Positions 4,801 through 60,400 of a DNA stretch of 64,000 nt are shown one piece after another. The DNA is from Caprella mutica. Lineage: Eukaryota > Arthropoda > Malacostraca > Amphipoda > Caprellidae. The number at the start of each line of letters is the position of its first letter. Within the stretch, counting starts at the first letter, position 1. The stretch is from contig CANNZV010001043.1 in the NCBI GenBank assembly GCA_947561585.1, forward strand, positions 251,467 to 315,466, read 5' to 3'. The notes under the pieces were generated by a model. It made no database searches. It worked only from the letters and a program-made list of their open reading frames with translations, and was not told the origin of the DNA. The position numbers and the translations under genes are program-made.

Positions 4801-4809
4801 CTCAAGCCA
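4801..4809 (+). repeat. Left 9-bp target duplication of FB1
   Basis: CTCAAGCCA directly precedes the terminal GGCA of the element; the identical 9-mer follows its other end at 16891-16899. Confidence 0.9.
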
Positions 4810-4843
4810 GGCACTAACTAAAATGCGGAAAAAAAACGTGAGC

Positions 4844-4871
4844 GTGACGTGAGCGTGCACGCTCACGTCAC
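4844..4871. repeat. Subterminal 28-bp perfect palindrome (left arm of FB1)
   Basis: A perfect self-complementary 28-mer centred on GTGCAC, beginning 35 bp inside the left end. A 24-bp palindrome with the same core lies at 16832-16855, 36 bp inside the right end. The symmetric placement suggests a transposase-binding site; this function is inferred. Confidence 0.75.
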
Positions 4872-5092
4872 TTAGTATTGACTAAAACACGGAAAATGGA
4901 ATTTGCGTGCACGCCCACGCAACTAAGTTGACTAAAACATGGAAAAGTGGAATTTCATGGAATTTCTTGGCGTGCACGCTCACGCAACTGTCTAAAACGC
5001 GGAAAAAATGAAATTATTGGCGTGCACGCTCACGCAACTGTCTAAAATGCGGAAAAAAAGAATTGGCGTGCACGCTCACGCAACGGTCAAAA

Positions 5093-5995
5093 ATATTTTT
5101 GACTCAAATATTTTTGGCTCAAATATTTTTGACTCAAATATTTTTGACTCAAATATTTTTGACTCAAATATTTTTGACTCAATATTTTTGACTCAAATAT
5201 TTTTGACTCAAATATTTTTGACTCAAATATTTTTGACTCAAATATTTTTGACTCAAATATTTTTGACTCAAATATGTTTGACTCAAATATTTTTGACTCA
5301 AATATTTTTGACTCAAATATTTTTGACTCAAATATTTTTGACTCAAATATTTTTGACTCAAATATTTTTGACTCAAATATTTTTGACTCAAATATTTTTG
5401 ACTCAAATATTTTTGACTCAAATATTTTTGACTCAAATATTTTTGACTCAAATATTTTTGACTCAAATATTTTTGACTCAAATATTTTTGACTCAAATAT
5501 TTTTGACTCAAATATTTTTGACTCAAATATTTTTGACTCAAATATTTTTGACTCAAATATTTTTGACTCAAATATTTTTGACTCAAATATTTTTGACTCA
5601 AATATTTTGACTCAAATATTTTTGACTCAAATATTTTTGACTCAAATATTTTTGACTCAAATATTTTTGACTCAAATATTTTTGACTCAAATATTTTTGA
5701 CTCAAATATTTTTGACTCAAATATTTTTGACTCAAATATTTTTGACTCAAATATTTTTGACTCAAATATTTTTGACTCAAATATTTTTGACTCAAATATT
5801 TTTGACTCAAATATTTTGACTCAAATATTTTTGTCTCAAATATTTTTGGCTCAAATATTTTTGACTCAAATATTTTTAACTCAAATATTTTGACTCAAAT
5901 ATTTTTGACTCAAATATTTTTGACTCAAATATTTTTGGCTCAAATATATTTGGCACAAATATTTTTAACTCAAATATTTTGAATCAAATATATTC
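5093..5995 (+). repeat. 15-bp tandem array (GACTCAAATATTTTT)n, left arm
   Basis: About 60 copies of GACTCAAATATTTTT, nearly identical in the centre and degenerating toward 5990 (GGCTCAAA, AACTCAAA, GGCACAAA variants). The length, 15 bp, keeps several reading frames open on both strands, but the resulting proteins are pure repeats and are not genes. It corresponds in inverse orientation to the shorter array at 14020-14275. Confidence 0.95.
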
Positions 5996-6109
5996 TTTAA
6001 AGATATATATTTTTAATTAATATTATTTTTTTCTTTTACTATTGATAACCCATTATTTTTATGGGAAGTACACTATAGTTAGTGAAATTGAAATATAAAT
6101 ATAAATTAG

Positions 6110-9100
6110 CGTGACGATATATTAATTTTATAATATAATTTTGAACGGAATTATGTGATGCATGAAAGGAACGTGCGTCACGCAACTTAATTAGCACAAT
6201 GATGACAGAAAATATAAATTGGCGTGACGATATCAATTGTAGAATTTACTATTGTATGGAATTATGTGTTGGCGCGATAGAAACGTGCGGCACGCTGCTT
6301 AGTGAAAAAATGACAGAAATTATAAATTAGCGTGACGATATCAATTGTATAGTAAAATATCGGATGGAACTATGTGTTGGCGTGATAGAAACGTGCGGCA
6401 CGCTGCTTAGTGAAAAGATAACAGAAATTTTAAATTAGCCTGACGATATCAATTGTATAGTAAAATATCGGATGGAACTATGTGTTGGCGTGATAGAAAC
6501 GTGCGGCACGCTGCTTAGTGAAAAGATAACAGAAATTTTAAATTAGCCTGACGATATCAATTGTATAGTATAATATCGGATGGAACTATGTGTTGGCGTG
6601 ATAGAAACGTGCGGCACGCTGCTTAGTGAAAAGATAACCGAAATTATAAATTAGCGTGACGATATCAATTGTATAGTAAAATATCGGATGGAACTATGTG
6701 TTGGCGTGATAGAAACGTGCGGCACGCTGCTTAGTGGAAAGATAACCGAAATTATAAATTAGCCTGACAATATCAATTGTATAGTATAATAACGGATGGA
6801 ACTATATGTTGGCGTGATAGAAACGTGCGGCACACAGCTTAGTGAAAAGATAACCGAAATTATAAATTAGCGTGACGATATCAATTGTATAGTAAAATAT
6901 CGGATGGAACTATGTGTTGGCGTGATAGAAACGTGCGGCACGCTGCTTAGTGGAAAGATAACCGAAATTATAAATTAGCATGACGATATCAATTGTATAG
7001 TATAATATCGGATGGAATTATGTGTTGGCGTGATAGAAACGTGCAGCCCGCTGCTTGGTGAAAAAATAACCGAAATTATAAATCAGCGTGACGATATCAA
7101 TTGTATAGTATAATATCGGATGGAATTATGTGTTGGCGTGATAGAAACGTGCGGCACACAGCTTAGTGAAAAGATAACCGAAATTATAAATTAGCATGAC
7201 GATATCAATTGTATAGTATGATAACGGATGGAACTATATGTTGGCGTGATAGAAACGTGCGGCACACAGCTTAGTGAAAAGATAACAAAAATTATAAATT
7301 AGCATGACGATATCAATTGTATAGTATAATATCGGATGGAATTAAGTGTTGGCGTGATAGAAACGTGCAGCCCGCTGCTTGGTGAAAAAATAACCGAAAT
7401 TATAAATTAGCGTGACGATATCAATTGTATAGTATAATATCGGATGGAACTATGTGTTGGCGTGATAGAAACGTGCGGCACGCTGCTTAGTGAAAAGATA
7501 ACAGAAATTTTAAATTAGCCTGACGATATCAATTGTATAGTAAAATATCGGATGGAACTATGTGTTGGCGCGATAGAAACGTGCGGCACACTGCTTAGTG
7601 AATAGATAACAAAAATTATAAATTAGCGTGACGAAATCAATTGTATAGTATAATATCGGATGGAACTATGTGTTGGCGTGATAGAAACGTGCGGCACGCT
7701 GCTTAGTGAAAAGATAACAGAAATTTTAAATTAGCCTGACGATATCAATTGTATAGTAAAATATCGGATGGAACTATGTGTTAGCGCGATAGAAACGTGC
7801 GGCACGCTGCTTAGTGAAAAGATGACAGAAATTATAAATTAGCGTGACGATATCAATTGTATCGTAAAATATCGGATGGAACTATGTGTTGGCGTGATAG
7901 AAACGTGCGGCACGCTGCTTAGTGAAAAGATAACAGAAATTTTAAATTAGCCTGACGATATCAATTGTATAGTAAAATATCGGATGGAACTATGTGTTGG
8001 CGTGATAGAAACGTGCGGCACGCTGCTTAGTGGAAAGATAACCGAAATTATAAATTAGCCTGACAATATCAATTGTATAGTATAATAACGGATGGAACTA
8101 TGTGTTGGCGTGATAGAAACGTGCGGCACACAGCTTAGTGAAAAGATAACCGAAATTATAAATTAGCATGACGATATCAATTGTATAGTATGATAACGGA
8201 TGGAACTATATGTTGGCGTGATAGAAACGTGCGGCACACAGCTTAGTGAAAAGATAACAAAAATTATAAATTAGCATGACGATATCAATTGTATAGTATA
8301 ATATCGGATGGAATTAAGTGTTGGCGTGATAGAAACGTGCAGCCCGCTGCTTGGTGAAAAAATAACCGAAATTATAAATTAGCGTGACGATATCAATTGT
8401 ATAGTATAATATCGGATGGAACTATGTGTTGGCGTGATAGAAACGTGCGGCACGCTGCTTAGTGAAAAGATAACAGAAATTTTAAATTAGCCTGACGATA
8501 TCAATTGTATAGTAAAATATCGGATGGAACTATGTGTTGGCGCGATAGAAACGTGCGGCACACTGCTTAGTGAATAGATAACAAAAATTATAAATTAGCG
8601 TGACGAAATCAATTGTATAGTATAATATCGGATGGAACTATGTGTTGGCGTGATAGAAACGTGCGGCACGCTGCTTAGTGAAAAGATAACAGAAATTTTA
8701 AATTAGCCTGACGATATCAATTGTATAGTAAAATATCGGATGGAACTATGTGTTAGCGCGATAGAAACGTGCGGCACGCTGCTTAGTGAAAAGATGACAG
8801 AAATTATAAATTAGCGTGACGATATCAATTGTATCGTAAAATATCGGATGGAACTATGTGTTGGCGTGATAGAAACGTGCGGCACGCTGCTTAGTGAAAA
8901 GATAACAGAAATTTTAAATTAGCCTGACGATATCAATTGTATAGTAAAATATCGGATGGAACTATGTGTTGGCGTGATAGAAACGTGCGGCACGCTGCTT
9001 AGTGGAAAGATAACCGAAATTATAAATTAGCCTGACAATATCAATTGTATAGTATAATAACGGATGGAACTATGTGTTGGCGTGATAGAAACGTGCGGCA

Positions 9101-10835
9101 CACAGCTTAGTGAAAAGATAACCGAAATTATAAATTAGCATGACGATATCAATTGTATAGTATGATAACGGATGGAACTATATGTTGGCGTGATAGAAAC
9201 GTGCGGCACACAGCTTAGTGAAAAGATAACAAAAATTATAAATTAGCATGACGATATCAATTGTATAGTATAATATCGGATGGAATTATGTGTTGGCGTG
9301 ATAGAAACGTGCAGCCCGCTGCTTGGTGAAAAAATAACCGAAATTATAAATCAGCGTGACGATATCAATTGTATAGTATAATATCGGATGGAATTATGTG
9401 TTGGCGTGATAGAAACGTGCGGCACACAGCTTAGTGAAAAGATAACCGAAATTATAAATTAGCATGACGATATCAATTGTATAGTATGATAACGGATGGA
9501 ACTATATGTTGGCGTGATAGAAACGTGCGGCACACAGCTTAGTGAAAAGATAACAAAAATTATAAATTAGCATGACGATATCAATTGTATAGTATAATAT
9601 CGGATGGAATTAAGTGTTGGCGTGATAGAAACGTGCAGCCCGCTGCTTGGTGAAAAAATAACCGAAATTATAAATTAGCGTGACGATATCAATTGTATAG
9701 TATAATATCGGATGGAATTATGTGTTGGCGTGACAGAAACGTGCGGCACGCTGCTTAGTGAAAAGATAACAGAAATTATAAATTAGTGTGACGATATAAA
9801 TTGTATAGTATTATATCGGATGGAATTTTGTGTTGGCGTGACAGAAACGTGCGGCACGCTGCTTAGTGAAAAGATAACAGAAATCTTAAATTAGCGTGAC
9901 GATATCAATTGTATAGTAAAATATCGGATGGAACTATGTGTCGGCGTGATAAAATTGTGCAGCCCGCTGCTTAGTGAAAAGATAACCGAAATTATAAATT
10001 AGCATGACGATATCAATTGTATAGTATAATATCGGATGGAACTATGTGTTGGCGTGATAGAAATGTGCGGCACACTGCTTAGTGAAAAATAGCAAAAATT
10101 ATAAATTAGCGTGACGATATCAATTGTATAGTATAATATCGGATGGAATTATGTGTTGGCGTGATAGAAACGTGCGGCACACAGCTCAGTGAAAAGATAA
10201 CAAAAATTATAAATTAGCATGACGATATCAATTGTATAGTATAATATCGGATGGAATTATGTGTTGGCGTGATAGAAATGTGCGGCACACTGCTTAGTGA
10301 ATAGATAACAAAAATTATAAATTAGCGTGACGAAATCAATTGTATAGTATAATATCGGATGGAACTATGTGTTGGCGTGATAGAAACGTGCAGCCCGCTG
10401 CTTAGTGAAAAGATAACCGAAATTATAAATTAGCCTGACGATATCAATTGTATAGTATAACATCGGATGGAACTATGTGTTGGCGTGATAGAAACGTGCG
10501 GCACACTGCTAAGTGAAAAGATAACAAAAATTATAAATTAGCGTGACGATATCAATTGTATAGTATAATATCGGATGGAATTATGTGTTGGCGTGATAGA
10601 AACGTGCGGCAAACAGCTCAGTGAAAAGATAACAAAAATTATAAATTAGTATGACGATATCAATTGTATAGTATAATATCGGATGGAATTATGTGTTGGC
10701 GTGATAGAAACGTGCAGCCTGCTGCTTAGTGAAAAGATAACCGAAATTATAAATTAGCGAGACGATATCAATTGTATAGTTTGATATCGGATGGATTATG
10801 TGTTGGCGTGATAGAAACGTGCGGCACGCAAATTT
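6110..10835 (+). repeat. 108-bp satellite array (about 43 monomers) with higher-order structure
   Basis: Monomer contains GATAGAAACGTGCGGCACGC, GCTTAGTGAAAAGATAAC and GTGACGATATCAATTGTATA. Successive copies of the GGCGTGATAG site are 108 bp apart (6381, 6489, 6597, 6705). Diagnostic monomer variants recur at 972 bp, which is nine monomers: TTAGCGCGAT at 7781 and 8753, GTATCGTAAA at 7859 and 8831, GTATAGTATG at 7211, 8183 and 9155. The array therefore has a 9-mer higher-order repeat in its middle and diverged monomers at its ends. It is part of the left arm of FB1. Confidence 0.95.
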
Positions 10836-11210
10836 AATTTAATATTTCATAGTAACTTTGATGAATTGCTTATAGTTATATCGTTAATTAATTCAACCAA
10901 ACTATCTTAAATTTTTATAACTAGTCGTAAAAATATATGGTACAGCTAGTCCTAGTTAAGTTTAGAAATTATTATTGTCAGTAGCGTAATTTTGTTCAGC
11001 ACTAGGACATTTAATTTTAATCAAGCCTCAACAGATTCAATTAAATGTTTTTTTACGAAATTATTATATTAGAGTTTAAAGGTTATAAATATGAATTCAA
11101 TCACTATTATTCGGCAAAAATAGAGAGAACCTACTTCTTGAATGCAGTCTCTTAGCAATGAATGTGACGAAAAGGGACACAAGCAGCTCACGGATGGAAG
11201 AGGTGATAAT

Positions 11211-11389
11211 TAGGGCTGGGACAATATGCTCTAAAAACTATAGATCCCTAAAATGTTATAGACGGAGAGAACTAAAGAGTATTGAATGGTTCTAAACCAG
11301 AGGTACATAGTATTCGATATCATTTCATTTAGTTTCGTCTATGATATTTTCGGGATCTATAGTTTTTAGGGCATATTGTCCCAGCCCTA
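11211..11389. mobile_element. 179-bp hAT-type MITE with 8-bp target duplication
   Basis: Inverted ends of about 35 bp starting TAGGGCTGGGACAATATGC on the left, with the complement at the right end, differing at very few positions. Flanks are perfect 8-bp repeats GTGATAAT (11203-11210 and 11390-11397). The YARGG-type terminus and the 8-bp duplication are the hAT superfamily signature. Too short to code. Confidence 0.9.
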
Positions 11390-12600
11390 GTGATAATACT
11401 TGAAACGTACGAGCCTTCCTAACACAAGCCTTCCTAACACAAAAATCTATCACAAAATTAAAAAAGTGTTAACCCCCCGATGATACAGGGGGGGGGGGTG
11501 TTTTTTGGTGAAAAAAAAGTTGACGTATCTTTCTGAAAATTCGTGAGAGTTCACGGTCCTCCGAAATGGAAATTGAAATAATGCGTCAGAAAGACTCCGA
11601 GATTCTCTAGAGAATGGTGTAGGTCAAAAGTTCCTAGGACCCAGGAAACCTCCTTCAACAAGCGTTTCAAAGTTCATTTTTTGGCCAAAAATGGCGTTAC
11701 AGCTTTTTTTGGTCGATTTTACATGTCGAACTGGTCTAAAAAAGTGGTGTACGGACATGGTCCATGCCACACTTATGGCACTCATTGTGATGGTAAATTT
11801 TTTTCGAAATTCGACCCCTAACCCCCCTCAAAATGGGGGTTGAAGTTTACCTCTGTTCGTGGACCCGGGGTTGGACCCTGGAACCCTCTGATCAAAACGG
11901 GACCCACATCACGTGAAAGATCCCAAAATTCCCTACAAGACCATACAAGTATGATTTTCATAGACCCAAACCAAGCTGAGCTACGCAATTCCGAAAATGT
12001 CAAATTTTTGCATTTCAGCCCCAAAATTTTTCCGACCTGAAATTTTTTTGTAATTTTTTCTCACGGAAATGGCATTCACGGCAAAATGGTTGGGTTAAGG
12101 AGGGAAAGTCATCAGGTCAAAAAGATGCGGGCACATTTTCCACATTTAAGAACAGTTAGCACGTACCATATTTCCTCCCCCAACTCCTTCTATGGCGGTT
12201 CCCCCAGCACCTATAAAATCACTCACTTTTGTCTTTGAGGTCGTGTAGCTACGACCATGGTCGACACACAGATTTCTCATACCTGGAAATGGATACGTAT
12301 CAAAATTGTCTACACGACACAACAATCCACAACTCTCTACTTCTACCAGGGGAGGAGCTATAAGCTCTACAAAATAAAATTGAATTTCACGAAATTCAAA
12401 AGCCGAAATTTAAAAAAAAAACAGAACTGAGGCCCTGTGGAGACCCCAGTGCTCTTTCATATTCCAAAAGGGCTAAGCTTTAGACCCAAAACTGTAGGAG
12501 GAGATGAGATTTCTAACTTTAGTTGCACTGTTTATATATTTACTTAGTTTTTCCCAAGGAAAAAGCTGAGAGTCAGCGCACACCACACACACACGAATAT

Positions 12601-12930
12601 CGCAAGCTCCCCCCCATGTATCGTTGGCATGGACGGAGGTTCCCCCACCTAAAACCCCCCACCTGGGTGTGGGGTGGGGGTTGGGTGGGATGATTGGGGG
12701 ATGAACCCAAGGACCAAGGTCCATGGTGTGGTTCCGGGGGAACGGCGCCGCCAGAGGGATGGGGGGTCGCAAGCTCCCCCCCATGTATCGTTGGCATGGA
12801 CGGAGGTTCCCCCACCTAAAACCCCCCACCCGGGTGTGGGGTGGGGGGTGGGTGGGATGATGGGGGGATGAACCCAAGGTCCAAGGTCAATGGTGTGGTT
12901 CCGGGGGAACGGCGCTGCCAGATTTTACAG
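12601..12930. repeat. GC-rich 167-bp tandem duplication
   Basis: Two nearly identical units start with CGCAAGCTCCCCCCCATG at 12601 and 12768, each holding C-runs and the CACCCGGGTGTGGGGTGGGG-like segment and ending near GGTTCCGGGGGAACGGCG. Open frames across it come from the repeat and are not believed to be genes. Confidence 0.85.
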
Positions 12931-13499
12931 TACGTAATGCAAAAATAAAAATTCACCAACCTACCAAACTAATTAATGAATTCTGATTCCTGTCAATTCA
13001 ATTAAATAATCTCCAGCCAATTAATTTTAATAACCAAATTTTTAAGTGATTTTTTTTAAATTACTTCTAGATAATTGTAATTATATGCTATTTTACCATG
13101 ATTAGAGTGGAACATGACGGAAATTACCGCTATGGGTTGCGCATGTATAATTTTATAGTTATTAAATACAATGTGTTACTGTAAAACGGATAGAAATTGA
13201 GTTTCAAGAGAAAAACGGTACTTAAACTTTTACGTAATCAATTGGAATAGCTTAGAGAGAGGATGAAGAATTTTCTTTAAACAAAGAAAATAATAATTAG
13301 TTTTCTATAAAAGAGTTTGAGGGGAAACTAACATAAAAATTAAAGGAACAAAAGTAATAAAAGTTGACAAAGAGCAAGAAACTAAACAGTGTCTAATTGC
13401 ATAATATTGTCACGCTACATGATAACAGTCAAACGGAAAAATGAATATGTGTAAATAAAACAATAGCGTGATATAATATTTAATAATAAATATTCGAAT

Positions 13500-13830
13500 G
13501 TATATCTTTTCACTAGGTAGCATGCCGCACGTTTCTATCACGCCAATACATAATTCCACCCAATAACAAACTATAAAACTGATATCGTCACGATAATTTA
13601 TAATTTCTGTTATCTTTTCACTGAGCAGCGTGCCGCACGTTTCTATCACGCCAACACATAATTCCATCCGATATCAAACTATACAATTGATATCGTCACG
13701 CCAATTTATATTTTCTGTCATCATTGTACTAAGTTGCGTAACGCACGTTTCTTTCACGCTAAAACATTATTCCATTCAAAAGTATAGTATACAATTTAAT
13801 AATTAATATGTCGTCACGCTAATTTCTATT
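13500..13830 (-). repeat. Three inverted 108-bp satellite monomers, right arm of FB1
   Basis: Reverse complements of the left-arm satellite: GTGCCGCACGTTTCTATC and GATATCGTCACG occur with the same internal order. Only about three monomers remain here against about 43 on the left. Confidence 0.9.
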
Positions 13831-14019
13831 TCTATTTTATTCTCACTAACTAGTGTACTTCCCATCACAATTTATGGGTTATCAATAGTAAAAGAAAAAA
13901 ATATTATTAATTAAAGATATATATATTCAAAGAATATATTTGAAGGAATTAATTAAAAAAAAAGTTGTTTAAAAAAATGTATTTAGACAGAAAAATATGT
14001 AAAACAATTGAGCCAAGAA

Positions 14020-14275
14020 ATTTGAGTCAAAAAATTTGAGTCAAAAAAATTTGAGTCAAAAAAATTTGAGTCAAAAAAATTTGAGTCAAAAAAATTTGAG
14101 TCAAAAAAATTTGAGTCAAAAAAATTTGAGTCAAAAAAATTTGAGTCAAAAAAATTTGAGTCAAAAAAATTTGAGTCAAAAAAAATTTGAGTCAAAAAAA
14201 ATTTGAGTCAAAAAAAATTTGAGTCAAAAAAATTTGAGTCATCAAATTGAGTCAAAAAAATTGATTCAAAAAATT
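14020..14275 (-). repeat. 15-bp tandem array (TTTGAGTCAAAAAAA)n, right arm
   Basis: About 16 copies, the inverse counterpart of the 5093-5995 array but with a homogenised variant (AAAAAAATTTGAGTC instead of the complement of GACTCAAATATTTTT). Open frames over it are repeat artefacts. Confidence 0.92.
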
Positions 14276-14284
14276 TAATTTTCT

Positions 14285-16830
14285 GCATTTTAGACAGTTG
14301 CGTGAGCGTGCACGCCAATTATTTTAATTTAGACATTTGCGTGAGCGTGCACGCCATTTTCTAAAATTTTCTGCGTTTTTGACAGTTGCGTGAGCGTGCA
14401 CGCCAATTATTTTTTTTCCGCATTTTAGACAGTTGCGTGAGCGTGCACGCCAATTATTTTAATTTAGACATTTGCGTGAGCGTGCACGCCTTTTTATATT
14501 TTTTCTGCGTTTTTGACAGTTGCGTGAGCGTGCACGCCAGTTCTTTTTTTTTCCGCATTTTAGACGGTTGCGTGAGCGTGCACGCCAATTATTTTAATTT
14601 AGACATTTGCGTGAGCGTGCACGCCATTTTTTAAAAATTTTCTGCGTTTTTGACAGTTGCGTGAGCGTGCACGCCAATTATTTTTTTTCCGCATTTTAGA
14701 CAGTTGCGTGAGCGTGCACGCCAATTATTTTAATTTAGACATTTGCGTGAGCGTGCACGCCTTTTTTTTATTTTTTTCTGCGTTTTTGACAGTTGCGTGA
14801 GCGTGCACGCCAGTTCTTTTTTTTCCGCATTTTAGACAGTTGCGTGAGCGTGCACGCCAATTATTTTAATTTAGACATTTGCGTGAGCGTGCACGCCATT
14901 TTTTAAAATTTTTCTGCGTTTTTGACAGTTGCGTGAGCGTGCACGCCAATTATTTTTTTTCCGCATTTTAGACAGTTGCGTGAGCGTGCACGCCAATTAT
15001 TTTAATTTAGACATTTGAGTGAGCGTGCACGCTATTTTTTTAATTTTTTTATGCGTTTTTGACAGTTGCGTGAGCGTGCACGCCAATTATTTTTTTCCGC
15101 ATTTTAGACAGTTGCGTGAGCGTGCACGCCAATTATTTTAATTTAGACATTTGCGTGAGCGTGCACGCCATTTTTTAAAAAATTTCTGCGTTTTTGACAG
15201 TTGCGTGAGCGTGCACGCCAATTCTTTTTTTTCCGCATTTTAGACAGTTGCGTGAGCGTGCACGCCAATTATTTTAATTTAGACATTTGCGTGAGCGTGC
15301 ACGCCTTTTTTTTATTTTTTTCTGCGTTTTTGACAGTTGCGTGAGCGTGCACGCCAGTTCTTTTTTTTCCGCATTTTAGACAGTTGCGTGAGCGTGCACG
15401 CCAATTATTTTAATTTAGACATTTGCGTGAGCGTGCACGCCATTTTTTAAAATTTTTCTGCGTTTTTGACAGTTGCGTGAGCGTGCACGCCAATTATTTT
15501 TTTTCCGCATTTTAGACAGTTGCGTGAGCGTGCACGCCAATTATTTTAATTTAGACATTTGAGTGAGCGTGCACGCTATTTTTTTAATTTTTTTATGCGT
15601 TTTTGACAGTTGCGTGAGCGTGCACGCCAATTATTTTTTCCGCATTTTAGACAGTTGCGTGAGCGTGCACGCCAATTATTTTAATTTAGACATTTGCGTG
15701 AGCGTGCACGCCATTTTTTTATTTTTTCTGCGTTTTTGACAGTTGCGTGAGCGTGCACGCCAGTTCTTTTTTTTCCGCATTTTAGACAGTTGCGTGAGCG
15801 TGCACGCCAATTATTTTAATTTAGACATTTGCGTGAGCGTGCACGCCATTTTTTAAAAAATTTCTGCGTTTTTGACAGTTGCGTGAGCGTGCACGCCAGT
15901 TATTTTTTTTCCGCATTTTAGACAGTTGCGTGAGCGTGCACGCCAATTATTTTAATTTAGACATTTGCGTGAGCGTGCACGCCATTTTTTTATTTTTTCT
16001 GCGTTTTTGACAGTTGCGTGAGCGTGCACGCCAATTCTTTTTTTCCGCATTTTAGACAGTTGCGTGAGCGTGCACGCCAATTATTTTAATTTAGACATTT
16101 GCGTGAGCGTGCACGCCATTTTTTTTTCTGCGTTTCTGACAGTTGCGTGAGCGTGCACGCCAATTCTTTTTTTTCCGCATTTTAGACAGTTGCGTGAGCG
16201 TGCACGCCAATTATTTTAATTTAGACATTTGCGTGAGCGTGCAAAAATTTCTGCGTTTTTGACAGTTGCGTGAGCGTGCACGCCAATTATTTTTTTTCCG
16301 CATTTTAAACAGTTGCGTGAGCGTGCACGCCAATTATTTTAATTTAGACATTTGCGTGAGCGTGCACGTCATTTTTTTTAATTTTTCCGCGTTTTAGACA
16401 GTTGCGTGAGCGTGCACGCCAATAATTTTTTTTCCGCATTTTAGACAGTTGCGTGAGCGTACACGCCAATTATTTTAATTTAGACATTTGCGTGAGCGTG
16501 CACGCCATTTTTTTAAAAAATTTCTGCGTTTTTGACAGTTGCGTGAGCGTGCACGCCAATTATTTTTTTTCCGCATTTTAAACAGTTGCGTGAGCGTGCA
16601 CGCCAATTATTTTAATTCAGACATTTGCGTGAGCGTGCACGTCATTTTTTTAATTTTTCCGCGTTTTAGACAGTTGCGTGAGCGTGCACGCCAATAATTT
16701 TTTTCCGCATTTTAGACAGTTGCGTGAGCGTGCACGCCAAGAAATTCCATAAAATTCCACTTTTCCATATTTTAGTCAACTTAGTTGCGTGGGCGTGCAC
16801 GCAAATTCCTTTTTTCCGGCTTTTAGACAG
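14285..16830. repeat. GTGCACGC array with about 136-bp higher-order unit, right arm
   Basis: Every unit carries TTGCGTGAGCGTGCACGCC. Three unit types alternate: one after CCGCATTTTAGACAG, one after AATTTAGACAT and one after CTGCGTTTTTGACAG, giving a three-unit repeat of about 136 bp (CCGCATTTTAGAC at 14418, 14553, 14689). About 18-19 higher-order copies. The left arm has only about five units (4840-5090). The final stretch 16700-16830 matches 4873-5000 closely in inverse orientation. Confidence 0.93.
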
Positions 16831-16831
16831 T

Positions 16832-16855
16832 GGCGTGAGCGTGCACGCTCACGCC
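16832..16855. repeat. Subterminal 24-bp perfect palindrome (right arm of FB1)
   Basis: Perfectly self-complementary, same core as the palindrome at 4844-4871, at nearly the same distance from the element end. Confidence 0.75.
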
Positions 16856-16890
16856 GATTATTAATTCTTTTCCGTATTTTAGATACTGCC

Positions 16891-16899
16891 CTCAAGCCA
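16891..16899 (+). repeat. Right 9-bp target duplication of FB1
   Basis: CTCAAGCCA, identical to 4801-4809. Confidence 0.9.
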
Positions 16900-17868: not shown

Positions 17869-17924
17869 TACCTTGGCACTGTGCCACCGTGGATGTATAT
17901 TAGGTAGGGGGTCCACCGTGCATA

Positions 17925-18001
17925 CAATTACCGGAACGGGACATGAATTACCGGAACGGGACATGAATTACCGGAAAGGAGCATGAATTACCGGAACGGA
18001 G
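17925..18001 (+). repeat. About 20-bp tandem repeat at FB6 left end
   Basis: Four units of ATTACCGGAACGGGACATGA with small changes. The inverse array of three units is at about 27383-27445. Confidence 0.85.
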
Positions 18002-18536
18002 TTGTTTTGTTGAGAAATATTCCTATTTATTTAATTTAGTTACACAAATAGTCGATATATGGTCTAAATGATATCATATCTAACTCGTTTCGTCCCGTAA
18101 TCGTTACAAAACGTATGATACATAGACAAACATTTTACAAGAGTATATGCTGAAATTAGTTTTCTTTATAAGATATTTCATAGAAAATACTTTAAGGAGA
18201 AACTAAAGTAATTTTAGTGTGATTATAATTTTATTGAGAAATAACGCTAGTTATGTAATTTAGGTATGTATTTGGTCCAAATATGATATCATATTGAACC
18301 ATTTTATACTAATTTCTGCTCGCTCGTAATCGCTACCCAACGTCTGAAATAGACATCGTGATTCTGCATTATAGTATTATTGAGTTCTATATTTTCAGTA
18401 CCTACAAATTCGGAATATATTTCAAAAGAAGCAGCTTCAAGGTAGAAAATTAGAGGAACTATTTAAGCTACCTATAAAATTTGTTAACTATTGCATTATA
18501 TTACCTGCCTAATTAAGAACCATGGTACCTAACTAT

Positions 18537-20143
18537 TGTAGTGACTCACGTCATACATTCTTATATATAATCCTTAAATATAAAATACTAATCATAATTC
18601 TCCTTATCTTTATTTTATTAATTATCTTATTTTAACAGCATGCTCTTCCTTAAGGTTAACTTAATTCTATTTAATAATAAATAGAATTTCCTTCTTAATT
18701 GTAATACAAATAATCTTATTTTCAAACAACCATCGTCACACGCACACCTTATATTTGTTACCGATAGTACCAACCCTCGCGAAGCTAGAAAGTTTGTAAA
18801 CAATGTATCCACTAGGCCTAAGAAAACAAAGCCCTCTTTGGAATATTCTGCGCCAACTGTCAGTATAGACGCTGAACTAGTTAAATAAACACCTGTGTAT
18901 AGTTCTTAAACTTTGTGATTCGTAATTTCATAGACACATATCATTTGATATACTTATAGTCTATTCTCATTGAGAATTCCTTCTTTACATTTGTGATAAC
19001 ATATTCTTGCTTTACAGACCTAGGAAACTTATTAATTGTTAGTAAAATACTAGCTTGGTTATACAAACTTATGCCCAATATATACCTACCCTCTTGACGC
19101 TCATCTATGAACACTGAACATCGTTGCTACTTCTTCAGCACAATATCTTCAGTTTCATCATCCCCAATAATTGGGTACAGTATAAATATATAATTTCATC
19201 TTTCTTTATATACAGCTTATTATATTATCTGTCATAATATAATGAATATTTACTATTCTATAATTCTTATCTTACTTACCATATCATTGAATGCAAATAT
19301 TTAAATAACAAGTATACTAAATATGGCAGTGCCTTAAATAATAGTAATGTATTCAATATATGTAATATTAGTTATTATCAGTACTAGATATTATGTGTAC
19401 ATAATATACGCGTAGCGTAAAGCTTGCTCAGTACGCTTTCTATGAGTGACGCTATCAAAGAAAACGATAAGCCTCAAAGCCTTAAGGGGTACTGCCTCAG
19501 ATATTAAATCTCACCAACCTTATCGGTAGTAAGCAATTTTCTTTTTAACTGACTAAGTTCTTATAATCTCATTTATTTTAATATTCTAAATAACTCACTA
19601 CTATTTTATTTGAGTAACTTTTGGTGATTACTAGACAATTGTTTAGTAAACAATTTATTTATTTAAAGTAACGTAATCTAACCAGAGGAGTGAAAATAAT
19701 ATACAAATGCAAATATTGATATCCTTCATGATTTGCAGGAATTAGTCTACGCAACTAGTACTACGCCGCAATTACTACTACACAACTCAGTGGTAATCAT
19801 TCTCAGTCACAGGTTCGACTGATATATCAGCTATCAAGCGCATATCCTTCTCCTCAACGTGGTAAAGTAGAGGATACCCCAAGCTTTGGCAACGCAAGCA
19901 CCAACGCTAGCACACTCGTCTTCGCAACCTACCTCACTCAAGACGAGCTCTGAATTCTCACTCATTACTCTCAAAGTTATGTTATTGATATTTAAGTAAA
20001 TTATTACTAACAATTAAACATTTTATTTTCATGCAGAAGTCATTTATTTAGAGCCAAAGAAAAGTATTGAAATATCATTATAATTAAAGTAAAGGAAAAA
20101 GAAAATATAATAAAAATAAGTATCATCTAAACGAGTTACAAAA
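18537..20143 (+). repeat. Left LTR of gypsy element
   Basis: 1607 bp, starts TGTAGTGACTCACGTC, ends TTACAAAA just before the primer site. It is AT-rich, with no gene inside. A 61-residue frame present in both LTRs is not considered coding. Confidence 0.93.
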
Positions 20144-20144
20144 C

Positions 20145-20160
20145 TGGTGACCCCGGATTG
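20145..20160 (+). other. Primer-binding site of gypsy element
   Basis: TGGTGACCCCGGATTG one base after the LTR. TGG pairs with the CCA end of a tRNA. The exact tRNA was not identified. Confidence 0.75.
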
Positions 20161-20452
20161 ACAACGAACACTCAAGCAAACTTCTGATATGGCTCAGATG
20201 TAATGATTTTTTGTATGGAATAAAATAAGGTAGTCATTGAGAGTTACTTAATATCTTAAATCTCTAACTTCTTAAGATCTATCTCTAGAAATTACTAACT
20301 GCATGATATAGTTTTAAGCTAATAATATCTTTCTCTCCTTAAAAAAATTCACTTTCAGAACGATTGTGGGTATTATAACCATATTATTCAAAATACTCAT
20401 TTGAATTGTTCTTCTTACTTTCATTCTTATCTTTAATCTTTCCTCTTTTACA

Positions 20453-21433
20453 ATGGTTGGGAATAATGATACAACCAATCCAGCTACTGCCACTTCTGCT
20501 ACTCATATACCTAACCTACCTGAATTTCATCCAGATGAAGAATGGCTCATTCTTGCTAAAAAGTTACTTCAAAATGCAGGGCAGCTATCGAATACTGCTA
20601 AATTCTTAGCCCTCTATAAAAGTTTACCAAGAGACATACAGAAGGATTGTAAAGAAATGCTACAATCGGATGCAGAAAACACTTTTGATCTGCTATGCGA
20701 AGAGCTAAATAAAAGATTTGAAACCCCAGCTCACGTCAAGTTTCAAAATATGTATACATGTGAAACTATTGGTGACAGATCACCAGTACAATTCCTTAGA
20801 GATCTTCGTCGCAAACATTCTTCAGTCGGTACTATAAATCTTGAACATCTTCAATTTGCATATGCACAAGGTTTGCCTGATAAATACAAACAATTGGTAT
20901 TTAGTGATTCACCAAATAACTTAGATGGAATTGCTGAAAGAATAGAGAAACTCCATAATGTCAACAAAAGCTCTGTGGCCACATCAAATTCTTACCCATT
21001 CCAAATAAATAACTATTCTTCTTCGATTCCAAATGGAGCCATTTCAAACGTAAATTCGAAAGAGAATGAAGCCCAAAACATGAAAGATAATTCCTTGTTG
21101 AATGGATCGAGACAAATGCAACTCTTAGAAGATTTGAAGGAAACAATGGTAAAATTGAACAAACGAATAGATGAAGTAGAATCTGCTGTCACAAGTTACA
21201 AAAAACAACCTCCGGTACAAAATGAACAAAATTATCGTTCTTACCCTCAACGTGCGATAACTCAACAGAGGAAAGCTAATTTTGATAATTATGCTCCTAA
21301 GCCCAAATCCAATGCTAATGGATTTTGTAAGTATCATACTCTCTTCGGACATCGTTCACGCACTTGCATTTTCCCATGTAATTGGGGAAAAGAAAACACT
21401 TCTCGTAAGCCATTCAACCAGGGAAACTATTAA
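20453..21433 (+). CDS. gag: gypsy gag
   Basis: 326 codons. ATG at 20453; the preceding about 300 nt is leader. Residues 25-160 form the capsid-like region ([10 protein letters not shown] start, A-Q-G-L-P block near residue 140). A Gln/Asn-rich linker with a coiled-coil-like stretch (residues 205-250) follows, and near residue 292 comes a nucleic-acid-binding motif [14 protein letters not shown], a histidine-containing variant of the zinc knuckle common in insect Ty3 elements. The gag stop (21431-21433) directly follows a frameshift signal (see next entry), so gag is made alone or as a gag-pol fusion. Confidence 0.9.
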
Positions 21434-24400: not shown

Positions 24401-24720
24401 ACAAGGGTCCATACCGTGTAATTAGTCGCACAGATAAGTATTTCACAGTAGATCTACCGCGAGGACCTGACCAAATCTCAATTGACAGACTGAAACCGGC
24501 CTATTTGGCAGATGAACTTCTTATTACTCCTCAACCTACTCCCACACCTCTGATATTCATAGCGAATGAAACTATTCCAGCAGAAACTAATAATCATAAT
24601 GCTATTAACCATGAACCTTTGCCAGCTATTGTAAATGATGAACCTCCCAATGAATTCAGCACACGTTCTGGACGTAGAATTCATACACCTTCTTACCTTG
24701 ATGATTATGTTAGATTCTAA
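21409..24720 (+). CDS. pol: gypsy pol: protease, RT, RNase H, integrase
   Basis: The frame is -1 to gag and open from 21409; the first ATG is at 21622, downstream of the protease active site, so entry must be by frameshift. Order: protease DTGA at 21523-21534; RT with [11 protein letters not shown] and catalytic YIDD at 22453-22464; RNase H with [11 protein letters not shown] near 22915 and TDHQPLL near 23116; integrase with an H2C2 finger (H-X-L-G-H then CISCQRAK, 23550-23670), the LDIVGP, DRGAQF and [11 protein letters not shown] blocks of the D-D-E core, and a GPY/F-type tail K-G-P-Y-R-V. No stop or frame break. PR-RT-RH-IN order places it in Ty3/gypsy. Confidence 0.95.
21421..21462 (+). 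promoter_or_regulatory. -1 ribosomal frameshift signal between gag and pol
   Basis: The heptamer GGGAAAC (21421-21427) lies in the gag frame as G GGA AAC, the canonical X XXY YYZ pattern, and the gag stop follows 3 nt later. After an 8-nt spacer comes a stem CGTGGA (21436-21441) pairing with TCCACG (21457-21462) around a 15-nt loop. A -1 slip at this site enters the pol frame, which is open from 21409. Site and pairing are read directly; frameshifting itself is inferred. Confidence 0.8.
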
Positions 24721-38830: not shown

Positions 38831-38834
38831 TCAG

Positions 38835-40305: not shown

Positions 40306-40319
40306 AACCGATCGAATAC

Positions 40320-43870: not shown

Positions 43871-43894
43871 TTTCGGTAGGTTGGGTTTCTATGT

Positions 43895-44277: not shown

Positions 44278-44280
44278 GGT

Positions 44281-47248: not shown

Positions 47249-47646
47249 GGAGCTAGTAAAGATAATGGACCAGAAATGAAGCTAGTAAAGATAATGGACC
47301 AGAAATGAAGCTAGTAAAAGATAACGGGCCAGAATACATTTTCTAGTTTTGAAAAATATTTTTTTTAGTATTTATATAAATACAATATTATAAATGATAA
47401 TATTAATCGATTATACATTAATTTTGCATATTTTATTAATTGAAAGAATTGATAAAAAACATGGTCCATTTTGAAAAATTGAAAGAACTTCTGCTTAAAT
47501 CCTTTAATGTGGTATCTATGATTCCAAAATTATGTTCTTATTCCAATTATTGGTCAAATATTAATAATTTAACCAAGTGAAGATAACGGACCAGAATTGA
47601 AGCAAGTAAAGTTAACGGACCTTGGTCCGTCATCTTTACTTGCTCC
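47249..47646. mobile_element. FB5: 398-bp foldback-like element
   Basis: Left arm has three about 30-bp units GCTAGTAAAGATAATGGACC; right arm has the inverted end GGTCCGTCATCTTTACTTGC preceded by two direct units. Termini are GGAGC and GCTCC. Flanks CTAATTTTT (47240-47248) and CTATTTTTT (47647-47655) match at 8 of 9 bases. Related short palindrome at 62258-62335. Confidence 0.75.
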
Positions 47647-54400: not shown

Positions 54401-57400
54401 CCATTATTCAATCAAAGCAAACGTCAATACTATTCTCTACCTTCAACTTGACACCCATTCCTATTTATGCAATTCACAGCTTTTTTCCTAATGCTACATA
54501 TTTATCCAAAGTGATAATTTCTTCCATGATATTTCGTGATAATTCTTCTCGTAGATATGATTTTGTGGAGGATTGTGAATTTGATCCCAATGTCTGTGAA
54601 TCTGTATGTTGACTAAGGCACGGATACAGAAAACTGTTTCTTCTCGAATAATAATTTTGTTTGAGAAATGTTCTGGCTTCGCAAATTTAAATCGCCTTTG
54701 TATGTCAATTTCAGTAAGTTTTTGTTTGATTTCCATATAGTATGGACACATTTCCAATTCGTTGCACATTTGATGAAATGATGTGGGTTATATTTCAGTA
54801 TCATTTCGAAAATTAAATCTACGTCGAATGGATTAAATAGAATCTGTATCGACAAACTAATAAAAAGTTATAACAGTTTAATAATGGGTAAACCTTTTTA
54901 GAGACATACTGAATAGGGGAGCGTGCCGCCACCCGAAACCCCCTGCCAGATCATTAAACAATCATGAAGTATGTATGCAGTACAACAAACTAGCGGACAC
55001 AACAAACTAAATAAAGGCCATTTATGTTAAGAATTTCAGAATAATCTTCATTTATATATAAATATATGATACACTCAACAAAGATGACAAGATATAATTG
55101 AATATAACTTTGAAACTCAACATAAATGCCCTTAATGTAGTTTATTTTATCCACTCGTTTGTTGTACTGAACACTTCATTATGTTTCTTGACCTAGAATG
55201 AGGGTTTAAGGGGTGGTACGCCTCCTTATACTCATATATAATCACTAATCAGTATTTGATTCTATAATAATTTAATAAATAAAATGAAGATTTATTAATA
55301 TTCCACTCATAATTGAACCTTTGGCAGACGTGCTTTCATTCCGTGACCGAAAGTTCTGAAACCGATTTTACCGGCCACCGTATTGAACGTGGTACACTGA
55401 ACAGCCAGATGGTCCAGAGCTTCTATTTATTAGTTGATTGAAAATATTGTACCACAATGACCTAGTTGTCAAAATATTTAATTATATATAGGGTTTTGTA
55501 GTTCTCAATCGTAATTTAATCCTTTCGAATCTGCTGGAACACATTTGTCCCAGAGACATACTTGTCCCCAGGTTAGTAGTAGGATTCAACGGGTCCGCAT
55601 CGGTTCATGCGAACCGGTTGCTAGACAGTTTGAATCCCATCACTGTACATTAGGTAATCGTAACGAATATATAATACCTAAGCAACTGGTGGCTTAGAAT
55701 GGTAACAAGCCACTCATCTTCACGGTGAGACTCATTGTACCAAAATGCTTCCTTTTCTGGATAAATGCCACCTCTCACTGCAATCCTCTTGATTGTTTAG
55801 AGATTACAATCAACGATTTCACTGGCACTAGAGTCTAGAGGCATATTCAGTCCGGAACCAGAGACGACTTCCCCATAAGTCGGCAAACTTAGAAACAGCT
55901 GCCAACCTTAACGCCGTATAGAGTTATCGAGCAGAAATTCCTCACAAGGTCCTCGCTCAAATAACAATTGATGATGTAGTTGCGAACAATACTTGAACGC
56001 CCATAATCGACCATCGAGAGATACAGAAAAGGATCATATAGTGAGTAAATCCATAGCAATTCGATGCCAGTCAAGTTTCACGGACAGTTCTCCATGTCCT
56101 ACACGGACATGCTTCAAACCTGTCAGAACATATTTTTACTTGATCACGTATTTGGTCAGTTCTCAACTACTTCACCAAGTAAAGGGTTAGAGCAACACCA
56201 AAATTGTGCGGCAAATGTGCCACTCATATCGCATCTTCGCGCAACTTGCTTATTGCAGACGCCACCGATATACCTAGTTCCATGTCATCTGCGTCATTAT
56301 CTCTGAAACTCAACTCTAGTACACCGATCCGGCTTGTTTTCGGTCTCAATCTCAGTCATAAACTTTAATTTTTAGCTCGTGCTAAAAAAGCGTCTACTCA
56401 CCTCTAGTAGACGCTTTATTAGGATCTCCGCAGCAACTTCTGGTGCGCACATGCTGACGTGCTTCTACAGTGTTATCAAGTCAATTCAATACAGTACGGG
56501 AATAAGTTGTAACAGCTAAAGTTTTATAAGCCCACACAATCACAAGATCAATTATCTTACTCTGCGACATTGATATGAGAATAATCAGACTTCTAACGAC
56601 GCAAAGAAGAATCTCCAAAAAGTATAGCCATTGCTAATTAGCTTGCGTCAGTCCAAACAGTAACATTACCAGTAGACTTAACGCACCAACGGCCCGTCAC
56701 AGGGTCTTGCTTACGAACTATACTAAACAGCTTTGATGCTAATTTGGAGATAGGCTTATCAACGGGAGCATCCCACATAAATGCAATGGTAATGCAACCA
56801 GCCCACAGTGGGGTAGGGACCCACGAGACGGCCACATCTCTTTTCGTCACTGGAGAATTCTCCACAGCTCCACGTGACATCCAAAGATGACCATCATGCA
56901 CCACCCATACGCAACGCGATTCCTAAAAGGCGGTCTCCTTCAAGACCAACAGGTTCCTTCAGCTCCATACCAAAACGCTACAGATGATGACACACACGTT
57001 TGGCACTTACTTCAGGCCCCTCAACCAAGGTATCATCAATTTAATGATCAGTGCCACATCGCACATCATCAACCAACGAAAGAATCTACATCATAATCAT
57101 CGACATTATCTATATATATTATATAACCAAATTCCAAACGAGTCAACGCCTCCAACACCTCAGACTTGATACTTCCTTATTTTTTTCAGAAATATGGATC
57201 TGCAGGTGGTATACTTGAGATCTAACACCTTAAGCATGATAAAACATAGGTTAAATGAACAGTGGTTTTTACAAGTTAAAAGGTATAAGTTTATTATAAG
57301 TGATTAATATAGGTGATCTCTCTGCGATGCACTGCAGACAACTGACACTAGAGAGATTTACACATCCTTTTATATAAACAGGAAACAATTAGGTATACAA

Positions 57401-60400
57401 CATGAATCATAGCTAGAACCAGGAAATGTTATCATAAGACAATTCTGCTGAGTAGTTAAAATACATTAGCTAAATACAACATATGTAAAATATAAACAAA
57501 TAACAAAGTGTGACTATATTAATACAACAAAGCACACCTTGCAGCTATCTCCATTTGCGAACTTTTTCATTTCATATACATAGCAACCACATCGTCACCA
57601 GTGTGACTCTCAACAAACTCATTGAGTTCGACGCACTGCACCTTTCTCGTACATGCGAACTCTGAGTACTTCGATACTTGCCAACTGTCGTTTGTATATT
57701 CATCGTTAAAGACCGACGCTAGGGTGCAGACCACCTTCCCTTAGTGAATCTAGCAGTAAAATCTTACGCATCAGGACGCGCTACAGATCACTCAAAATTT
57801 CGTGCAGACATTCTTTCGAAGAACAGAGCCTTAAACACCATGATGTCAATCAACACTCCAACCGTCACAGCGAGTCACTTCAGATCGTCAACAGAGATAT
57901 TGACGTTCTTTCTCTTCAGGCTCCAGGTCTACGCACCACATTGAATTGGCGATACGCATCATGGAGTCACAGACTAAACTCAGCGATAGCCGACCCATCA
58001 CGAATTTCCACTGAGAAGCCTCGGCTGTGGTTAACTGTCTATAAAAACGGATAGCACTACCAGCAAGGAGATACTCCACTATCTCCTCCGACCTAACAGA
58101 CTCGGCCTTGCACCTCATTTCGAGGTTTTCACACCATATGACAACATCGCTACCGGTCCCAGAGAACTGACCCACGGTTCTATCTAATCTGCCCAAAATT
58201 AGACCACGGAAAACCATAATAGCAGAGCTAAGTTGCTTCAATAAAGCAGCAGTCTGCCCTTCCAATGGTGTGGTGACCGCAGATTTTGTCTCTGCCCTTG
58301 TGGAATAAACGGATCCCATCGGGTCCAAGATTTCCCATGAGCCCCCCGAGCGTTTCCAAAAACACCACAATGTTATTCTACAATAAAACAAATCCAGATT
58401 ATGCAAACTAGTACTAGGAAAAAATACCCAAAAATCCACCCGGAAAATATTTCCCTAGAAAAGGAGACCTCCACGACAAAAATGAAATATGTAATAGTAA
58501 TTTTCATCCTAATTTTGTCCTAATATACCTACTGAAAGAATAAAAAGAAAATATTAGATAGAAAAACATGTACTTATATACCAAATTACAGCAGTTTGAA
58601 TAAATCAATATAGTGATTTGTAAAATCTGCTATACATATATAACTAAAGGATTAAATTGTAGGCTATGGTCTTGATAAGGTCGATTTGTAACTGAATGAT
58701 ATTCGTTTCATATTTTTCCACAACATTATGGAGTCTATCAAAACAAATCTATATTTGCGCTTTTCCGCAGGAGGAGAATTACCAGCACTAAGTTGCTCTA
58801 AGCGATGTTTCTGATATTAATGTTTTTGAACATTTTTTAGAAAACTCCACAAATTTTGATGAGAACACCCAACACTATAGCAACTACGAAGACTCGGATT
58901 CCGCCTTCAATACCATGGTTTGTCTTCGGATGATTACTTTTCACTCTTATCATCATTCTTATTTATATGTTCCACGCAACGTCAGCTTGAATAATGCATT
59001 TTTTCTTGATCTCCTCTGTTGTCTTCATATGTAATTGTCTTCTAAGTAGTCTGTAACTTATTTAAATATTACTTTTTCGTTATTTTTACAGCTACATTGA
59101 CTACACAACACACAAATGTGATGTATTTAGCTTCAGACTGGTGGTCAAGGATTAAAACTAGGGGCTTGTAGGGCACAAAAATGTTATTATGAGACGATTT
59201 TATCCGAAAGAATTATTTCCGGGGGACTTTTTCCGCCGGGGAATTTTTTCCAGATACCATGCAAACTGGATCTCATTTCTGTTCCAGACAGACAAACAAA
59301 CTCGGCAGACTCTTTCCAGCAGACTCCAGTCTGGTTTCAATTCATAGAGTTCTAATCTAACAAACACTCTGCAGTGATGCTTGCCCGCTAACAAAATTAC
59401 TTAGCTGTATTACAGACGAAGAGAATCCACCCTCCAAAACGACTTTCCAAGTCATAAGTTCCAACAAGCTAACACTAGTTATTCACAGTAAAACGATAGG
59501 AGCAGTAATCAACTGCTCTATAATCTAGCTCACTCTGTAAGAACTCTGCGACAACTGAATGAATCTACGCGCCAGTACACACCACTGCACCACCACACGG
59601 TCCACATCAGTACCATACCATGGAAATCACACACGTGTACCATATATAAATTATCAGATTTTAATTTTCCCCTATGGTACACTGAAGATGATATAGATAT
59701 CATACCTACTTCTACTCTTGATACAAATGATATACTGGAAAAAAATACGATCCAAATTGACTCTAAATTGGAGATTGTCTCAAAACCGAATCAAAAAAGT
59801 GGGTCAATTTGACTCGTCCTAATATTTTACTCAAAAACAAGAAGTATTGACTACTAATTCAAAGTCAGATTGACTCAGGTAGAGTCAATAAAGAAAAAGG
59901 ACTCAAATAATTGAGTTTTCCAGCCTTGATTCAAGCGATAAGTCAGGTTGACTCGCAATTTTTTTTCAGTGTACAATCATGACACCAATGATTCAATCAT
60001 TACATTGAATTTGAGTAATTATTGGGGTGAATAACGTACGTGAACCATCAGATACACATTTATACCACCGCGTGGTAGCAGTGTTAAAATAATATAATAC
60101 TAAGTAAAAATTTAGTAGTGGGGTTCATGTTTCCAATTTTTTCAGTTCCACATGAATGTCATTCTAATTCAAGTGGGTGTTTCATTCTTCATAGTGGCAG
60201 AGATGGCTGCTAATCGACACAGTGCTCTGCTATCCATAGCCAAGATGGTTATGATGACTCTACTGGTTAGTAGAGAAACATCACTGGGAAAGTACAGTAG
60301 TTGTACAGTGGGCGTTAACATAGGGCATGTAATAATTTGACCATTATATATTTCATATTGACCTACGATTACCGGATCTTCCGGACCGAAAAAAATCAGC

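What the first reader, a model, noticed from the sequence alone, without database searches (positions are those of the whole stretch)
4801..59267. A recurring class: tandem-repeat inverted arms plus 9-bp target duplication, with unrelated arm sequences
Perfect 9-bp duplications flank FB1 (CTCAAGCCA), FB2 (ATCGAATAC), FB3 (GGGAAATGC) and FB7 (ATGCAAACT); FB5 has 8 of 9. Their arms share layout but not sequence, with units of 10, 15, 16, 30, 108 and 136 bp. Most ends begin with GG or GGN and carry a short ACGG or ACCG motif (TACGGAA, TACCGAA, ACGGTCA, ACGGACC). This suggests one transposase family (Mutator/Phantom-like by duplication length) tolerating fast-changing repeat arms, an unusual mode of end evolution.
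Basis: partly seen in the sequence, partly recalled or inferred. Interest (0 to 1): 0.9.

Follow-up and report, generated by a model that had tools for sequence, protein, structure and literature searches.

The report
Foldback transposons with tandem-repeat ends
Several jumping-DNA families in this unnamed eukaryotic genome carry repetitive inverted ends and copy nine bases of target DNA when they insert; they look like new, in part very recently active, families of a known kind (Mutator/Foldback transposons) tied to more than one transposase lineage.

Summary
In detail: FB1, FB2, FB3 and FB7 have perfect 9-bp flanking duplications. Genome copies confirm it: FB1, 19 of 20 exactly 9 bp (0 of 380 mispaired flanks reach 8 of 9); FB3, 15 of 21. 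An element I call FB4 fits 9 bp too. FB5 does not: its family duplicates 8 bp. FB7 has only about two units per arm.

The proposed check succeeded. The same genome holds MULE (Mutator) transposase genes inside elements with FB2's ends and arms (C6722) and FB1's ends and arms (C422, with Ulp1 and PHD domains), each with a 9-bp duplication. They fall in two MULE clades. A third clade, including FLYWCH-MULE (Phantom-type) proteins, has elements whose ends resemble FB3 and FB7. So: one superfamily, several transposases.

The arms are not filler. In FB1, FB2 and FB3 they repeat the element's own terminal motif, always in one orientation, as expected of transposase-binding arrays (shown for Galileo). 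Tm1 of root-knot nematodes is the closest case. These are new members of a known kind; unusual are several long-armed MULE lineages side by side and 7-18 kb FB1 elements with near-identical ends.

The parts
4801..4809 (.). FB1 left target duplication CTCAAGCCA
4810..16890 (.). FB1 element, 12.1 kb; arms of about 50-bp, 15-bp and 108-bp units left, 108-, 15- and 136-bp units right; ends GGCACTAACTAAAATGCGG / GGCAGTATCTAAAATACGG
   Evidence: 19 of 20 genome copies with exact 9-bp duplication
16891..16899 (.). FB1 right target duplication CTCAAGCCA
17900..17908 (.). FB4 left duplication TTAGGTAGG (8 of 9)
17909..27451 (.). FB4 element (my name): 20-bp units AATTACCGGAACGGGACATG at the ends of about 0.5-kb inverted arms, split by a gypsy LTR element (18536-26959)
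27452..27460 (.). FB4 right duplication TGAGGTAGG
32219..32227 (.). FB3 left duplication GGGAAATGC
32228..32744 (.). FB3 element, 517 bp, 16-bp units, inserted in a copia-like pol frame
   Evidence: empty site restores the frame
32745..32753 (.). FB3 right duplication
35033..35041 (.). FB2 left duplication ATCGAATAC
35042..40310 (.). FB2 element, 10-bp units, arms about 1.05 and 1.47 kb; lacks the transposase frames of the related C6722 element; an FB3-like repeat lies inside
40311..40319 (.). FB2 right duplication
47249..47646 (.). FB5 element: inverted ends GGAGC(A/T)AGTAAAGAT, 29-bp units in direct orientation at both ends; family duplicates 8 bp
58401..58409 (.). FB7 left duplication ATGCAAACT
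58410..59258 (.). FB7 element, 849 bp, diverged family, about two units per arm
59259..59267 (.). FB7 right duplication

Best explanation
These are non-autonomous cut-and-paste DNA transposons of the Mutator (MULE) superfamily with Foldback architecture, mobilised in trans by more than one MULE transposase lineage of the same genome. Shown: precise insertions with 9-bp target duplications, and transposase-bearing elements with FB1's and FB2's own ends, arms and 9-bp duplications. Inferred: the transposase (or a partner zinc-finger domain) binds a short motif near the end; the arms are arrays of that motif, grown by tandem duplication and kept alike by unequal exchange; the arrays raise binding and synapsis and so favour copies that carry them. 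FB3 and FB7 are inferred partners of clade A (which includes FLYWCH-MULE, Phantom-type proteins) from end similarity only. FB4's transposase was not found. FB5 is set apart (8-bp duplication).
For: FB1: all 40 scored left ends (of 567 first-look candidates) and all 40 scored right ends (of 585), the window's own included, are 99-100% identical; 19 of 20 paired copies have exact 9-bp duplications, 0 of 380 mispaired controls reach 8/9. FB3: 15 of 21 exact; joining 75 bases on each side of the window copy with one 9-mer gives a continuous copia-like frame. FB2: C6722 has ends CGGTTACAC/GGGTTACAC as FB2 does, arms of the same unit, MULE frames and duplication CCTCGGATC (10 bp if the next C is counted); FB2's interior is 90% identical to C6722's over 1.6 kb. 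FB1 partner: C422:542489-554136, duplication CATTTTCTG 9/9, MULE + Ulp1 + PHD. Terminal motif inside arms, terminus not counted, up to 2 mismatches: FB1 3+23, FB2 78+100, FB3 7+4, none in the wrong orientation; shuffled means 0.18, 3.2, 0.0. Tree. Clade A element C2450 with 17-bp units and an 8/9 duplication inside a satellite.
Against: The window copies carry no transposase found: none of the 59 PF10551 matches listed lies in the window, and one search gave no Pfam hit (it held about 970 of 2,321 residues prepared for FB1, 1,081 of 1,232 for FB2 and 247 of 709 for FB7; FB4 and FB5 frames were not sent). C422's MULE match lacks the first 48 of 99 profile positions where the 108-bp array ends, so it is not itself a working source. 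No FB3, FB4, FB5 or FB7 sequence was found in the 3.2-kb stretches around 30 of the 59 MULE hits. FB1-FB2-FB4 end similarity did not reach p 0.02. One FB1 pair (C1785) has no duplication. C1710 has 7/8 at best. The tree rests on 93 columns with long-branch warnings, C422 filling 39%. FB5 duplicates 8 bp. Binding to the arms is untested.
Confidence: 0.85

Rival explanations
1. One single Phantom-type transposase moves all types and tolerates any repeat arms.
For: Common 9-bp duplications in FB1-FB4 and FB7; ends mostly start with GG; related clade A transposases have different arm units.
Against: FB1- and FB2-ended elements encode MULE proteins outside the clade with FLYWCH members and gave no FLYWCH hit; FB1, FB2 and FB4 ends lack the GG at positions 8-9 found in FB3, FB7, C2450 and C1710 (C1710's ends were set with that motif in view).
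Confidence: 0.07
2. Unrelated superfamilies (for example P/Galileo, hAT, Merlin) converged on foldback arms; the equal 9-bp lengths are coincidence.
For: Foldback arms are known in the P superfamily (Galileo, PMC3688188); FB5 duplicates 8 bp and its superfamily is open; FB3, FB4 and FB7 have no transposase found.
Against: MULE domains lie inside elements with the FB1 and FB2 ends; 9 bp is exact in 19 of 20 FB1 copies.
Confidence: 0.06
3. Satellite palindromes or assembly artefacts, not mobile elements.
For: Arrays are long and repetitive, where assemblies err.
Against: Copies at unrelated flanks with exact duplications and 0 of 380 control matches; FB3 interrupts a copia-like frame cleanly.
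Confidence: 0.01

Closest known systems
Tm1 Mutator/Foldback family of Meloidogyne (PMC3169594; abstract and passages seen)
   Same: Composite tandem-repeat TIRs, asymmetric short outermost motifs, mostly 9-bp duplications (8-10 bp in 45 of 53), non-autonomous copies plus an element with a MULE transposase.
   Different: Tm1 is one family with a 13-15 bp unit and a FLYWCH Phantom-type transposase; here several arm types and MULE lineages occur in one genome, and the FB1 and FB2 partners gave no FLYWCH hit.
Rehavkus (PMC6446971; passages and table row seen; no sequence available here)
   Same: 9-bp duplication, PHD finger, minisatellite; FB1's partner has MULE + PHD and 9 bp.
   Different: The FB1 partner also has an Ulp1 protease domain and arms of kilobases (TIR 26-400 bp in that table); no transposase comparison was possible.
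Phantom / FLYWCH MULEs (PMC3169594, PMC6446971; passages seen)
   Same: Clade A proteins L031 and L034 have FLYWCH + MULE; C1710 (L034) and C2450 have tandem arms.
   Different: No window element was tied to one beyond similarity of ends; C2450's own frame showed MULE only.
Galileo and Tetris Foldback elements of Drosophila (PMC3688188, PMC4079207; abstracts and passages seen)
   Same: Long internally repetitive TIRs; in Galileo the repeats contain transposase binding sites; Tetris duplicates 8-10 bp.
   Different: Galileo is a P-superfamily element; Tetris has no known transposase and about 220-bp units.
Drosophila FB/NOF (recalled, not read)
   Same: Tandem-repeat inverted arms and 9-bp duplications.
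   Different: Not compared by sequence here.

Membership tests
Mutator (MULE) superfamily | MULE DDE transposase domain in an element with the same ends | tested here: met
   FB2 ends: C6722, and C2969 whose left end runs off the contig. FB1 ends: C422, domain truncated. FB3, FB4, FB5, FB7: not found around 30 of 59 hits.
Mutator (MULE) superfamily | 8-11 bp target duplication | tested here: met
   FB1 19 of 20 exact 9, FB3 15 of 21 exact 9, FB4 5 of 5 at 8/9 or 9/9, C6722, C422.
Mutator (MULE) superfamily | G/C-rich first bases of the TIR (PMC13359780, passage) | tested here: met
   13 of 14 ends listed start with GG or CG; FB7 left starts AG.
Phantom | FLYWCH finger with MULE domain | tested here: not met
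   For FB1 and FB2 partners no FLYWCH hit in the frames given. Met in clade A proteins L031 and L034. FB3/FB7: no transposase found to test.
Rehavkus | PHD finger and a transposase of the Rehavkus clade | tested here: inconclusive
   PHD found downstream of MULE in C422; no reference sequence was at hand for a tree.
Foldback architecture | Long inverted arms of tandem repeats | tested here: met
   FB1-FB3 met; FB4 has short 20-bp arrays in 0.5-kb arms; FB7 hardly (about two units per arm); FB5 not met, units in direct orientation.

The most novel reading that the evidence does not exclude
In one genome several deep MULE clades (three in my tree) built foldback arms by the same route: tandem amplification of their own terminal transposase-binding motif. 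The arms would then be selected binding-site arrays that titrate or recruit transposase. End sequence could drift as long as array units and transposase co-vary, so arm type would be a readable record of transposase-end co-evolution.
Probability: 0.35. Interest if true: 0.7.

Novelty: new member of a known kind. Interest (0 to 1): 0.52.

Why it matters
It offers a natural series of related transposases with different repeat arms and matching ends, one type (FB1) spread so recently that all scored copies have near-identical ends. That makes the open question of what foldback repeats do testable: binding-site arrays or by-products. FB1 elements of 7-18 kb could also be a large source of insertions and rearrangements.

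Tried and rejected
Rejected: chance 9-mers (control); assembly artefact. Rejected: FB5 as a 9-bp element (16 copies, 2 unusable; of 14 readings at k=8, 3 are 8/8, 2 are 7/8, 4 are 6/8 with the window among them, 5 are 4/8 or less; L084, L086 and L088 were probably cut at an internal unit, L083 and L091 perhaps too). Not supported: a common end class for FB1, FB2 and FB4 (85 pairs by my count, 400 shuffles each although the printed header says 1000; 8 pairs at p 0.02 or less, 1.7 expected; FB3L and FB3R with C2450R, C2450R with C1710R and FB7L with C2450R were best, 0 to 2 of 400; FB3 against C2450's left end did not reach 0.02, and two hits cross classes, FB4-C2450L and C1710R-FB5). Core motif: 32 arrays outside the training ends, 6 at p below 0.05 with 1.6 expected: L033, L051 (a related pair), L035, L036, window FB2 and window 63348; the other arrays of clade A loci tested (L029, L036 18-bp, L042 outer, L043, L044, L045, L054, L039) did not reach it. 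Tandem arrays near MULE hits: 21 of 30 loci have a TRF row, some short, and no background control was run. Led nowhere: searches (Rfam, 0 hits; no Pfam hits; gypsy pol relatives, mostly without names; species not identified), C74 (no clear duplication), C4601 and C1458 ends (not resolved), C3840 (its arrays form a separate inverted pair), C107 (ends not resolved). FB7 copies were not tested for duplications. Of 30 MULE loci 26 went into the tree (L050, L052, L056, L058 left out). Of 23 FB1 pairs 20 were fetched (C56, C51, C38 not).
Full report
Setting. The window is a repeat-rich stretch, G000:C1043:251467-315466 of an unnamed 903-Mb assembly. By the look of its frames (recall, not a domain search) it holds non-LTR, gypsy, copia-like and mariner-like elements.

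Observation. The four perfect 9-bp duplications are at the stated coordinates. A scan of the window alone is weak: 7 hits for 9-mers with inverted ends against a simulated mean of 5.9 and maximum of 10. FB2, FB3 and FB7 are among the 7, FB1 is not. I therefore tested copies in the rest of the genome.

Copies. FB1: all 40 scored left ends (567 first-look candidates) and all 40 scored right ends (585), the window's included, were 99-100% identical. Besides the window and C422, both ends were listed on 23 contigs; I fetched the flanks of 20: 19 had exactly 9/9, none had an exact 7, 8 or 10, and C1785 had no duplication. None of 380 mispaired flanks reached 8/9. By those coordinates element length runs from about 7.1 to 18.4 kb. 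FB3: 40 copies scored of 4690 candidates; with ends fixed by sequence, 21 copies (20 fetched plus the window) gave 15 of 9/9, 2 of 8/9, 2 of 8/8, and 2 with 2-3 extra bases. The window FB3 sits inside a copia-like pol frame; leaving it out with one 9-mer gives one open frame. FB4: 40 copies scored of 707; of 5 pairs fetched, 3 read 9/9 and 2 read 8/9 with ends CGGTTC or CGGTGC and GGGTCC, as I read, which tried several offsets; a one-base shift would make some 8 or 10 bp. The window copy then reads TTAGGTAGG/TGAGGTAGG, 8/9. FB5: 40 copies scored of 2023; 15 fetched plus the window, 14 readable. At k=8, 3 are 8/8, 2 are 7/8 and 4 are 6/8; at k=9 only the window reaches 8. So FB5 duplicates 8 bp. 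FB7: 40 scored of 441 candidates, listed matches 66-87% identical apart from the window itself; only the window copy's duplication is known.

Transposases. PF10551 gave 59 listed hits in the genome, none in the window; 30 loci of about 3.2 kb were stored, and 21 of them have at least one tandem-repeat row (no background control). C6722 holds an 8.1-kb element with FB2's units in both arms, ends CGGTTACAC and GGGTTACAC (the same pair as FB2), a MULE frame of 482 aa with neighbours of 144 and 162 aa, and the duplication CCTCGGATC, 10 bp if the next C is counted. C2969 is about 95-96% identical over some 6.9 kb but its left end is off the contig. FB2's interior matches C6722's at 90% over 1.6 kb, in reverse. 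C422:542489-554136 has FB1's arms and ends, duplication CATTTTCTG 9/9, a MULE fragment, and Ulp1 plus PHD in a further frame. Its MULE match lacks the first 48 of 99 profile positions, where the 108-bp array ends, so C422 is a defective carrier. A tree of 26 loci plus the C422 fragment (93 columns; C422 39% filled) shows three groups: C422 with L037/L038 (support 80), L047/L057/L049/L053 (97), and 20 others, clade A (98); the first two share a branch of 98, and the tool warned that long branches meet. Tblastn of the C422 frame to L038 is 33% over 301 aa, E 1.8e-39. The nearest of 6 relatives of the FB2-type protein, P0121 (64%), has an OTU protease domain before MULE; Pfam did not detect OTU in the frames given here. 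Clade A includes FLYWCH + MULE proteins L031 and L034. Clade A element C2450 (its frame shows MULE only) has 17-bp units, sits inside a 44-bp satellite and has ATGCGATGT/ATGTGATGT, 8/9. C1710 (L034) has 15-bp units and 7/8 at best.

Ends and arms. The six duplication-defined ends of FB3, FB7 and C2450 all have GG at positions 8-9; so do C1710's two, which I set with the motif in view. FB3's two ends are similar to C2450's right end beyond shuffles (0 and 1 of 400), not to its left end at 0.02. The arm units repeat the terminal motif, the terminus itself not counted and 2 mismatches allowed: FB1 3 and 23 copies, FB2 78 and 100, FB3 7 and 4, FB7 1 and 1 in 50 bp each, none in the wrong orientation; shuffled means 0.18, 3.2, 0.0 and 0.02. 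A weight matrix from the eight clade A-like ends found matches below p 0.05 in 6 of 32 other arrays: four clade A arms and two window arrays.

Mechanism. Shown: insertion with 9-bp duplications, MULE carriers of the FB1 and FB2 ends, and repetition of the end motif in arms. Inferred: mobilisation in trans, binding to the motif, growth of arms by tandem duplication. Galileo's transposase DNA-binding domain binds sites in its TIR repeats; that paper says such a role is untested for Foldback and Phantom repeats (PMC3688188, abstract and passages).

Known or new. Tm1 (PMC3169594, abstract and passages) has the structural marks: composite tandem TIRs, 9-bp duplications, Phantom-type transposase. 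Rehavkus (PMC6446971, passages) has PHD, a minisatellite and 9 bp. An arthropod MULE survey (PMC13359780, passages) found one type in most species and several in some, with distinct TIRs and transposases, and G/C-rich first bases. Whether these exact families are in Repbase was not tested. In the listings of searches I saw no title or abstract start that describes several MULE clades with motif-array arms in one genome; the library lacks most subscription journals.

Verdict.

Noticed in passing
36756-37228: A module of about 470 bp inside FB2 is also found, in whole or part, beside 10 of the 30 stored MULE loci in one orientation to the transposase, on either side of it, opposite in C6722, with 9172 first-look candidates genome-wide. 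Role unknown.
   Followed up: partly
18536-26959: Gypsy LTR element with 100% identical 1610-bp LTRs nested in FB4: a recent insertion.
   Followed up: no
27598-34530: Copia-like element (LTRs 98.9% identical) interrupted by a mariner-like element (29084-30390, name recalled), a 609-bp repeat (30774-31382, second copy inverted at 41206-41805) and FB3.
   Followed up: partly
43875-44285: 17- and 16-bp arrays flanked by GGTAGGTT on both sides; the 16-bp unit also forms an inverted pair near a MULE locus at C3840.
   Followed up: partly
45085-46901: 31-bp tandem array, about 58 copies, 93% alike.
   Followed up: no
11203-11397: Small inverted-repeat element with 8-bp duplication GTGATAAT inside FB1's interior, hAT-like by recall.
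   Followed up: no
38395-38797 and 54913-55254: Two further relatives of the FB3 core, one nested in FB2 without a clear left end.
   Followed up: partly
L056 (G000:C3:1794220-1794459): Matches the bacterial-type Mutator family PF00872 at 398 bits, so perhaps a bacterial contig or insert in the assembly.
   Followed up: no
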